From Mariprofundus sp. (lineage in GTDB: Bacteria > Pseudomonadota > Zetaproteobacteria > Mariprofundales > Mariprofundaceae): a stretch of DNA of 44,973 nucleotides. This document shows positions 8,425 to 44,973 of this stretch, in pieces; the stretch's first letter is position 1, and each line of letters begins with the position of its first letter. The position numbers were made by a program, and so were the translations under genes. A model generated the notes under the pieces. The model was given only the letters and a program-made list of their open reading frames with translations. It had not been told where the DNA came from and made no database searches. Where the stretch lies: assembly GCA_027019785.1 (NCBI GenBank), contig JALUWF010000232.1, forward strand, positions 1 to 44,973. The letters are read 5' to 3'.

Positions 8425-8831
8425 GTGAAAATAAAAACAGTGCAGACTCTGCCTTACAGGCAGAGGAAACATCTGAACAGATGAAGAACCACTACGGTTA
8501 TGCCAGCGATGAAGAGCGGCGGCGCAAACGTGGGCTGGAAGACTGGGAGTTGGTGGAGAGTATTCCGACCTCGCAAAAGCCCATTCCAAAATGGTTCATT
8601 GCAGTGATTGTCGGTGTTGTCTTTGTTTCCATCAGTATGAGTTTTCCGTTTTTCGGACGACGCGCTTTTTCGGTATTTGACTGGTCTCACTGGAGTATGG
8701 GGGTGATTGGTGCGGTGGTCTGGATTATTGCTGGCAGCATATTTATTTTTTTCATGACGCGAATGTATGGCAGCAAGACAGGAGGTCGTCTGGATAATGA
8801 TCCCGAACAGCACCCGGATGGCGATGAATGA
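8421..8831 (+). CDS. Two-TM membrane protein of unknown function
   Basis: 136 aa, ATGA overlap with preceding gene. Confidence 0.65.
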   Translation: MSENKNSADSALQAEETSEQMKNHYGYASDEERRRKRGLEDWELVESIPTSQKPIPKWFIAVIVGVVFVSISMSFPFFGRRAFSVFDWSHWSMGVIGAVVWIIAGSIFIFFMTRMYGSKTGGRLDNDPEQHPDGDE

Positions 8832-9145
8832 GGTGGCTAAAGAGAGGCTATATTGCCCCACTGTGCCTCTGTATGGCATATCTGGCGTTGGCTGGCTGTA
8901 ATAATGACGCAGGGGATAAATCGGCTCATGGAGAATCATCTGTCAGTTCGGTTGATGCAGGGCCGCTTCAAGCACTCTGTTCACAATGTCATGTGCCGCC
9001 CTCGCCCAAGCTGCATACTGCCGATCAATGGCCGGCTGTGGTGAGGCGAATGGAGCATCATCGCATGGATGCCAGAATGCCACCTGTTCCAGATGCAGCG
9101 CGTAAAATATTACTGACATGGCTGCAATCGCATGCAAAGCTTTAA
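8828..9145 (+). CDS. Lipoprotein monoheme c-type cytochrome
   Basis: LALAGC lipobox, CSQCH heme motif; ATGA overlap with preceding gene. Confidence 0.75.
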   Translation: MRWLKRGYIAPLCLCMAYLALAGCNNDAGDKSAHGESSVSSVDAGPLQALCSQCHVPPSPKLHTADQWPAVVRRMEHHRMDARMPPVPDAARKILLTWLQSHAKL

Positions 9146-42937: not shown

Positions 42938-43774
42938 TTACAGGCTGCTGACGCGCATGGAGAGATCAAGCGCCGGGGCGGAATGGGTGATGGCGCCGAT
43001 GGCGATGCGGTCGACGCCGGTTTCAGCATAGGCGCGGGCGTTGGCCAGCGTGATGTTGCCGCTGGCCTCCAGCAGAATGGAAGCCGGCACGATAGCGCGC
43101 GCTGTTCTGACCAAATCGGGGCTCATATTATCGAGCAGGATGATATCCGGGCAGGCGGTGACCGCTTCTTCAACTTCGGCCAGTGTTTCGCATTCCACTT
43201 CGATCCAGACCGGGTGATTACTTGCCTGATTGCTCTGATAGCAGGCGTGAATGGCATCGGTGATCGACCCGCAAACTTCGATATGATTTTCCTTGATCAG
43301 CATGCCGCTTTGCAGATCCATGCGATGATTGACGCCGCCGCCGTGCACCACCGCCTGTTTCTCCAGATGCCGAAATCCTGGTGTGGTCTTGCGCGTATCG
43401 GCCATCTGACAACCTGTGCCATCCAGTGCATCGACAAAGTTGCGCGTGGCTGTGGCGATGCCGGATAAATGTTGCAGGAAATTCAGCGCCGTACGTTCCG
43501 CCGCCAGCAAAGCGCGCATCGGCCCATTCATCTCACAGACGATCTGGCCAACCTCAACCCTGTAGCCATCAGTGGCTTTCCAGTCGCAGGCAATAGCCTG
43601 ATTCACTGCGGAAAACACGGCATCTGCGACCGCAACGCCGGATAGTACGCCAGCGGCTTTGGCCGTGATGCAAGCCGAGCCATGCAGGTTGGCAGGCAGG
43701 GTGGCAGTGGCGGTCAGATCATTAAATGCGGCATCTTCAGCCAGCGCCAGTTCGATAAGCTGGGAAACATTCAT
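42938..43774 (-). CDS. nadC: Nicotinate-nucleotide diphosphorylase (carboxylating)
   Basis: ERTALNFLQHLSGIAT, DTRKTTPGFRHLEKQAV, HRMDLQSGMLIKENHI. Confidence 0.96.
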   Translation of the reverse strand: MNVSQLIELALAEDAAFNDLTATATLPANLHGSACITAKAAGVLSGVAVADAVFSAVNQAIACDWKATDGYRVEVGQIVCEMNGPMRALLAAERTALNFLQHLSGIATATRNFVDALDGTGCQMADTRKTTPGFRHLEKQAVVHGGGVNHRMDLQSGMLIKENHIEVCGSITDAIHACYQSNQASNHPVWIEVECETLAEVEEAVTACPDIILLDNMSPDLVRTARAIVPASILLEASGNITLANARAYAETGVDRIAIGAITHSAPALDLSMRVSSL

Positions 43775-43850: not shown

Positions 43851-44222
43851 CTATGCCTTCGTTTGCTTTAGTAAGCTTGTAATGAATTTATTTATATCGT
43901 TAAATAATGCATCTTCTATTTCAAAATCTATATCAAAGCTCATACCATTATCCAACCACAGTTGTAACGAATTCCTATCTATTTTGTAACTCAATATATT
44001 TGCACCTCCATCACTTTCGCTACCATCAAACCACTCTATACTCGGAATGATTGGGGGAAATTCATAACTTACGGAAATATCAAAATAAAATTTTGATGGG
44101 TTAATTGGGTCATCGTCACCATCCTCTTCAAAAGAAGCTTGGATAATGTCGCCATCAATGGCCTCGGTGTATGAGACATCATGTGCAGTAAATTTAATGT
44201 GCATAATTTTCCATAGGGGCAT
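43851..44222 (-). CDS. Orphan integron-cassette-type ORF (small acidic protein, unknown function)
   Basis: ORF begins at the attC R' box (G|TTATGCCCC); AT-rich relative to neighbours; start may instead be at 44204 (MHIKFTAHD). Confidence 0.65.
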   Translation of the reverse strand: MPLWKIMHIKFTAHDVSYTEAIDGDIIQASFEEDGDDDPINPSKFYFDISVSYEFPPIIPSIEWFDGSESDGGANILSYKIDRNSLQLWLDNGMSFDIDFEIEDALFNDINKFITSLLKQTKA

Positions 44223-44295
44223 AACGCCGCCAGCAGGGGCCGAAAAACCAGAGCGAAGCGGCGGTTTTTTGGTCCCTCTGGCTGGCTTTGTTAGA
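44220..44295 (-). other. Integron attC recombination site
   Basis: Minus strand TCTAAC-AAAGCCAGCCAGAGGG...CCCCTGCTGGCGGC-GTTATG: outer TCTAAC/GTTA boxes, imperfect palindromic arms with extrahelical bases, and inner AAAAAACC/GGTTTTT stem. Confidence 0.85.
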
Positions 44296-44973
44296 TTTTT
44301 AATGCTCCAGTGTTTTCACTTTTAAACCCAAACAATGAACAATCTACAGGGCCAGCATACATCAACACCGAGTTTTCTCCCTCACCAACCATACTTAAAG
44401 GCTGCTCTAGCTCAGGCTTTATAAATGAGAGTGAATCTTCGGTAATAACAACAGCCTTTTCATTGTCAGCCCAGCAACCACATACTTTTACTACCCCAGG
44501 TTTGATCACTTCAAGCTCTAGTAAGACTATTTCCCCATTTGAAGCGAATTCCGGTTTCTGCACTCTCATTTTTTCTACAAATGATTCAGAAAGAAAGGAT
44601 TCGATTTCTGTAGTTGCCACTTTGACATGACCAGGGACCTGATTAAACGAGAGCGTAGTTGTGTCGTGTATTCGTACGTGGTTATCTGAGACTTTGAGCT
44701 TTTCATCTCCGTTCAAATCACTCACCTTTAGATTTAGCAGAGCGATATCCCCATCTAATATTCTAAAACTCAATTTGTTGTTTTCTGCAAGCTCAAAAAT
44801 TGTTGCCCCTTCGTTCTTTGATGAAAGTGCAATGCTTCCGGTAAGCAGCTTTATACTGTCTGCAGGCTCGATATATACATGGGATGCATTAGGTTTTTCA
44901 GTTCTCTCTATACCTTTCCATTCATAGAGGAGCTCATCACTAAACTCCAAGGATCCATGATGTATAGCATCGT
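44291..44973 (-). CDS. Orphan integron-cassette-type ORF, 5' end beyond the window
   Basis: Stop codon TAA lies inside the attC TCTAAC box; reading frame is open to the window edge (DAIHHGSLEFSDELLYEW...). Confidence 0.65.
   Translation of the reverse strand, partial: DAIHHGSLEFSDELLYEWKGIERTEKPNASHVYIEPADSIKLLTGSIALSSKNEGATIFELAENNKLSFRILDGDIALLNLKVSDLNGDEKLKVSDNHVRIHDTTTLSFNQVPGHVKVATTEIESFLSESFVEKMRVQKPEFASNGEIVLLELEVIKPGVVKVCGCWADNEKAVVITEDSLSFIKPELEQPLSMVGEGENSVLMYAGPVDCSLFGFKSENTGALKI

What the first reader, a model, noticed from the sequence alone, without database searches (positions are those of the whole stretch)
43851..44973. Integron gene cassettes with an attC site downstream of a housekeeping block
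The minus strand reads TCTAACAAAGCCAGCCAGAGGGACC...GGCCCCTGCTGGCGGCGTTATG. It has a CTAAC/GTTA simple-site pair, two nearly palindromic arms (AACaaaGCCAGCcAGaGG against AACgccGCCAGCAGGGG) with bulges, and an inner AAAAAACC/GGTTTTT stem. The stop codon of the right ORF lies inside CTAAC, and the left ORF can start at the ATG immediately after G|TT. This is how cassette genes are packed. Both proteins are orphans to me, so their function is open.
Basis: partly seen in the sequence, partly recalled or inferred. Interest (0 to 1): 0.75.

Follow-up and report, generated by a model that had tools for sequence, protein, structure and literature searches.

The report
Integron cassettes whose integrase gene vanished
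The end of this piece of a Mariprofundus (iron-oxidising marine bacterium) genome holds real mobile "gene cassettes" of an integron, a natural gene-capturing device, at a landing site that has lost its own integrase gene yet carries different cassettes in two sister species.

Summary
An attC covariance model built from ten sites beside integrases of other bacteria, with the window site left out, finds it at 44218-44297 (-) with 41 bits, E 4e-7; the next best hit in the window has 10.9 bits. The window contig ends at 44973 but shares an exact, unique 127-bp overlap with contig C140, which completes the right ORF (an HNH-domain protein). Beyond it lies an attI. Its sequence is shared with sister species G007 and with the DNA beside an intact integron integrase in G014. 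All three part exactly at the crossover base (AGAATAAATAG|), each with a different cassette. The HNH cassette (962 bp) begins G|TTAGAT, the perfect complement of its own R'' box ATCTAAC. No integrase gene remains at this locus in G000 or G007; the order is ADH - DUF3012 - attI - cassette(s) - nadC. The only integron integrase found in this genome (contig C41) is of another lineage. The left ORF sits where a second cassette would, but no attC follows it. So: a small chromosomal integron remnant, a new member of a known kind. Its modest surprise is precise cassette turnover at a site without its own integrase.

The parts
44218..44297 (-). attC site: R'' ATCTAAC 44296-44290, R' GTTATGC 44225-44219, crossover G at 44225, two extrahelical bases in the stem
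   Evidence: covariance model R1, 41.0 bits, E 4.1e-7, window site held out; DNA fold z -3.9 on the + strand
44225..44973 (-). HNH cassette, part inside the window; the whole cassette is 962 bp and begins at the attI crossover G, C140:341
   Evidence: 127-bp exact unique overlap of contig ends; cassette start GTTAGAT is the reverse complement of its R''
44291..44973 (-). right ORF, C-terminal 226 residues of a 287-residue HNH-domain protein; starts TTG at C140:308; stop inside the attC R'' box
   Evidence: Pfam HNH E 1.7e-4, 22.1 bits against cut-off 21.4
43851..44222 (-). left ORF, 123 aa (or 117 aa from ATG 44204), function unknown, begins right after the attC crossover; probable second cassette without its attC
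   Evidence: homologue in G005:C315 at 31% identity
43775..43850 (-). array/chromosome junction: shared with sister G007 only from about 43817 towards nadC (CAAAAATTGTCCTGAGTC...); no attC here
   Evidence: comparison of nadC upstream regions; no R1 hit
42938..43774 (-). nadC, first chromosomal gene beyond the array (then birA, coaX)
   Evidence: nadC homologues in 77 of 80 genomes searched; birA and coaX named from their sequence, not searched

Best explanation
This is the distal end of a small chromosomal integron in a Mariprofundus species. Cassettes sit at an attI site between an alcohol dehydrogenase/DUF3012-like gene pair and nadC. An integron integrase inserted a circular 962-bp HNH cassette by recombining its folded attC bottom strand with attI at G|TT (inferred from anatomy). 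The integrase gene that should lie beside the attI has been deleted; the same attI still stands beside an intact integrase in another species of the genus. The left ORF occupies the next cassette position but has lost its attC. Shown: attC, attI, crossover-precise cassette boundaries, absence of intI at the locus. Inferred: the recombination itself, that the left ORF was a cassette, and expression from upstream of attI. Cassette functions are unknown beyond an HNH nuclease-type domain in the first.
For: Held-out attC model hit, with three more attC sites elsewhere in the genome. Unique 127-bp contig overlap, with the HNH reading frame continuing across it. Shared attI sequence in G000 and G007 (88% over 277 bp), and in G014 beside an intact integrase ORF; all end at AGAATAAATAG and continue with different cassettes. 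Cassette start GTTAGAT complements R'' ATCTAAC; in G007 the start GCTATGC matches rc(R'') GTTATGC in 6 of 7 bases. G007 has the same order, with attC sites at L219:511-576 and, degenerate, at L044:378-450 just before nadC. G000 carries an IntI above the NCBIfam cut-off on C41.
Against: The C232-C140 join rests on a shared 127-mer in a fragmented assembly, not on reads. Only one attC is found in the array. The left ORF has no attC. No IntI of the matching (G014-type) lineage is found in this genome; an unassembled copy cannot be excluded at 94.6% completeness.
Confidence: 0.9

Rival explanations
1. The window and contig C41 flank one ordinary, complete integron (intI on C41, attI, a long array, then nadC) that the assembly broke.
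For: IntI on C41 is cut by the contig end; cassette arrays often break draft assemblies (PMC9024848).
Against: The window end continues into C140, not C41, with a unique 127-bp overlap, and leads to attI and core genes. C41's end has no second copy in the genome. The sister species has the same intI-less order.
Confidence: 0.05
2. A lone cassette was inserted at a non-att chromosomal site (attG-type insertion), not at an attI.
For: Single cassette, no intI nearby; such insertions are described (Loot et al. 2024, seen only as a reference in PMC11023631).
Against: The receiving sequence is the one beside an intact IntI in G014, and three species have three different cassettes at exactly that base.
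Confidence: 0.04
3. The hairpin is an ordinary terminator or chance palindrome between two chromosomal genes.
For: A strong stem with a T-rich stretch.
Against: attC model score and bottom-strand bias, simple sites at both ends, crossover-precise cassette boundary at the other end of the HNH gene, no synteny in relatives.
Confidence: 0.01

Closest known systems
Sedentary chromosomal integron
   Same: attI, attC-bounded cassettes of unknown function in one orientation, chromosomal position beside core genes
   Different: No intI at the locus; only one detectable attC; one or two cassettes rather than tens
[quoted passage not shown]
   Same: attC-bounded cassette(s) without a neighbouring integrase
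   Different: Keeps a recognisable attI, and has a single attC, below the default of two in IntegronFinder 2.0 (PMC9024848)
Integron of Mariprofundus relative G014 (L088)
   Same: attI homologous over about 130 bp, same crossover context AGAATAAATAG|TTA
   Different: G014 keeps an intact integrase ORF beside attI and carries a different first cassette (GIY-YIG-like ORF)
attC sites of Vibrio-type chromosomal integrons (from memory)
   Same: Arm pattern AACAAA...AGAGGGA / GCCCCT...GCGTTA looks very similar
   Different: Compared from memory only; not aligned here

Membership tests
integron gene cassette with attC | attC: R''/R' simple sites (RYYYAAC/GTTRRRY), imperfect palindrome with extrahelical bases, bottom-strand folding | tested here: met
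   R1 41 bits held out; fold z -3.9 on the bottom strand against -2.6 on the top strand. R' GTTATGC departs from GTTRRRY at one base; these bases come from the next cassette
integron gene cassette with attC | cassette bounded at crossover points, first bases complementary to its own R'' | tested here: met
   HNH cassette G|TTAGAT against ATCTAAC, 962 bp
integron gene cassette with attC | left ORF is also a cassette, with its own attC | tested here: not met
   no attC between 43851 and nadC; position only
complete integron | attI site | tested here: met
   homologous sequence beside intact IntI of G014, breakpoints at G| in three species
complete integron | integron integrase gene next to attI | tested here: not met
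   no intI similarity between the DUF3012-like gene and attI in G000; tblastn with G014 IntI gives only E 0.6 or worse. IntI exists elsewhere, C41, 321 bits
complete integron | cassette promoter Pc | tested here: inconclusive
   consensus scan found no sigma-70-like site in C140:290-640
CALIN | at least two attC sites without integrase (IntegronFinder 2.0 default; one in version 1) | tested here: not met
   one attC in the G000 array; the sister G007 array has two
integron | recombination of attC with attI by an IntI | not testable with these tools
   needs a cassette excision/insertion assay

The most novel reading that the evidence does not exclude
The attI lost its integrase before two species split, yet its cassettes have since changed at exactly the crossover base, so an integrase of another lineage (C41 in G000; C274/C119 in G007; 45-47% identical to the G014 type that belongs to this attI) works on this orphan site in trans.
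Probability: 0.4. Interest if true: 0.5.

Novelty: new member of a known kind. Interest (0 to 1): 0.35.

Why it matters
It shows that Mariprofundus and other Zetaproteobacteria carry chromosomal integrons with several integrase lineages (26 of 80 sampled relatives, not all of them Zetaproteobacteria, have one), on which the held open-access papers say almost nothing. The locus also offers a natural, testable case of cassette turnover at an attI without a neighbouring integrase, which a survey requiring an adjacent intI or two attC sites would miss.

Tried and rejected
Rfam scan of the interval: nothing relevant. A first family query used a wrong Rfam number (SAM-I-IV) and says nothing. Idea that window and C41 flank one array: rejected after the C140 overlap was found. 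Idea of an attG-type insertion: rejected after the attI was recognised beside G014's IntI. A suspected Pc promoter upstream of attI did not pass the consensus scan. Homologue searches of the left ORF in plasmids and genome contigs: none. Structure predictions of both ORFs were too poor to use (mean pLDDT 29.6 and 50.2), so no fold search was made. Collection scan for the attI sequence in viral contigs: the machine gave no answer. PADLOC hits for the HNH protein are short and weak.

Full report
WHAT IS THERE. The right ORF ends with TAA inside CTAAC, and the left ORF may start at the ATG that follows GTT. As single-stranded DNA the site folds better on the window's + strand, which is the attC bottom strand (-21.2 kcal/mol, z -3.9), than on the other (-17.7, z -2.6).

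ATTC TEST. Twenty-six of 80 sampled relatives have an integron integrase above the NCBIfam cut-off. An anchored-arm scan of the array side of these integrases gave a set of attC sites. Ten of these, from Mariprofundaceae and more distant relatives, made a covariance model, R1; the window site was not among them. R1 finds the window site with 41.0 bits and E 4.1e-7, against 10.9 bits for the next best place in 45 kb. In the rest of the genome it finds three more: C317:1903-1964, C208:551-616 and C373:4355-4416.

THE RIGHT-HAND SIDE. The window is the whole contig C232 and ends at 44973. Its last 127 bases are identical to the first 127 of contig C140 and occur nowhere else in the genome, as expected of neighbours in an assembly graph with k = 127. 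The right ORF continues without a break and becomes a 287-residue protein with an HNH nuclease domain (Pfam E 1.7e-4, just over its cut-off). Further right lie a small DUF3012-like lipoprotein gene (my naming), an alcohol dehydrogenase and other core genes, but no integron integrase.

THE ATTI. Reading with the cassettes, the sequence before the HNH gene is ...CATATCCAGATATGAATATC...GATATACAGTTAGATG...TATGATATGCAGAAACTAGAGAATAAATAG|TTAGAT. The sister species G007 has the same gene order and the same sequence (88% over 277 bp) up to AGAATAAATAG, and then a different cassette. The same sequence, in two blocks of 83% and 91%, stands directly beside an intact integron integrase ORF in G014, again up to AGAATAAATAG, again followed by a different cassette, a GIY-YIG-like ORF by eye. 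Three species with one left flank and three different right flanks, parting at the G of G|TT, is what an attI site looks like.

CASSETTE BOUNDARIES. The HNH cassette begins G|TTAGAT and its attC begins ATCTAAC, an exact reverse complement, as expected of a circular cassette opened at G|TT. On the minus strand of the joined 57 kb GTTAGAT occurs only here and 94 bases upstream, inside the attI region. The cassette is 962 bp long. This also supports the contig join independently. In G007 the first cassette has two ORFs and an attC at L219:511-576 (R1 34.5 bits); its start GCTATGC matches the complement of its R'' in 6 of 7 bases. A second G007 cassette follows; the contig holding it shares about 126 bases with the nadC contig, where a degenerate attC (CATAAG in place of GTTA; 31.5 bits) lies about 140 bases before nadC.

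THE LEFT ORF. It starts at the attC crossover, but there is no attC between its stop and nadC. Similarity to G007 upstream of nadC begins only at about 43817. It is therefore best read as a second cassette whose attC was deleted, but a chromosomal gene is not excluded. One homologue (31% identity) lies in G005, after a SNF2-type helicase gene and without a visible attC.

THE MISSING INTEGRASE. Between the stop of the DUF3012-like gene and the start of the attI homology there are about 135 bases and no integrase similarity. The only protein of this genome above the integron-integrase cut-off is on contig C41, cut by the contig end, 45% identical to G014's integrase, the type that stands beside this attI. 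G007 has two integrases of a third lineage (45-47% to G014's, 53% to C41's). Because G000 and G007 share the junction DUF3012-attI, the loss probably preceded their separation; the cassettes then changed at the crossover base afterwards. Either an integrase of another lineage acts on this attI in trans, or the ancestor's array was larger and was trimmed precisely in each species (which would also call for an integrase), or the locus was exchanged by homologous recombination. These were not separated.

HOST. Contig G011:C45 (113,556 bp) corresponds to Mariprofundus sp. EBB-1 contig NZ_RCFQ01000005.1 of the same length, and G011 is listed as the same genus as the window's genome. The genus is therefore that of Mariprofundus sp. 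EBB-1 (Zetaproteobacteria).

KNOWN OR NEW. Integrons, and attC clusters without an integrase (CALIN), are well known; IntegronFinder 2.0 reports the latter only from two attC sites on and notes that single ones can be real (PMC9024848). This locus keeps an attI, has one attC and no integrase. In the held papers the pairs integron/Zetaproteobacteria and integron/Mariprofundus occur in three and two papers, none with a title on this subject; they were not read. I file it as a new member of a known kind, with the turnover at an orphan attI as the interesting part.

Noticed in passing
G000:C373 (L111):4355-4416: Lone attC site (39.8 bits) next to a glucokinase-like gene, in a short intergenic region away from any integrase.
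   Followed up: partly
G000:C317 (L110):1903-1964 and about 1220-1280: attC (52.2 bits) between a BrnA-like antitoxin ORF and two small ORFs; a second attC-like hairpin without a GTT end follows before a DinG-like helicase gene.
   Followed up: partly
G000:C208 (L107):551-616: attC (45.9 bits) between two small ORFs with signal-peptide-like starts, followed by an IS256-like transposase fragment.
   Followed up: no
   Followed up: no
L088:9368-10681 (G014); also G023 and G007:C274: Some integron integrases lie in open frames of about 440-460 residues, over 100 longer than usual; in G014 the extra part is N-terminal and ends at attI.
   Followed up: no
G000:C281 (L103):6273-6954: Frame-broken tyrosine recombinase gene, not of the integron type by score.
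   Followed up: no
L085:7676-7794 and 8756-8874; similar ends in L112: Two copies of a 119-bp inverted-repeat element ending in GTAACTGCTCAG...CTGAGCAGTTAC, unrelated to attC; similar ends near the left-ORF homologue in G005.
   Followed up: no
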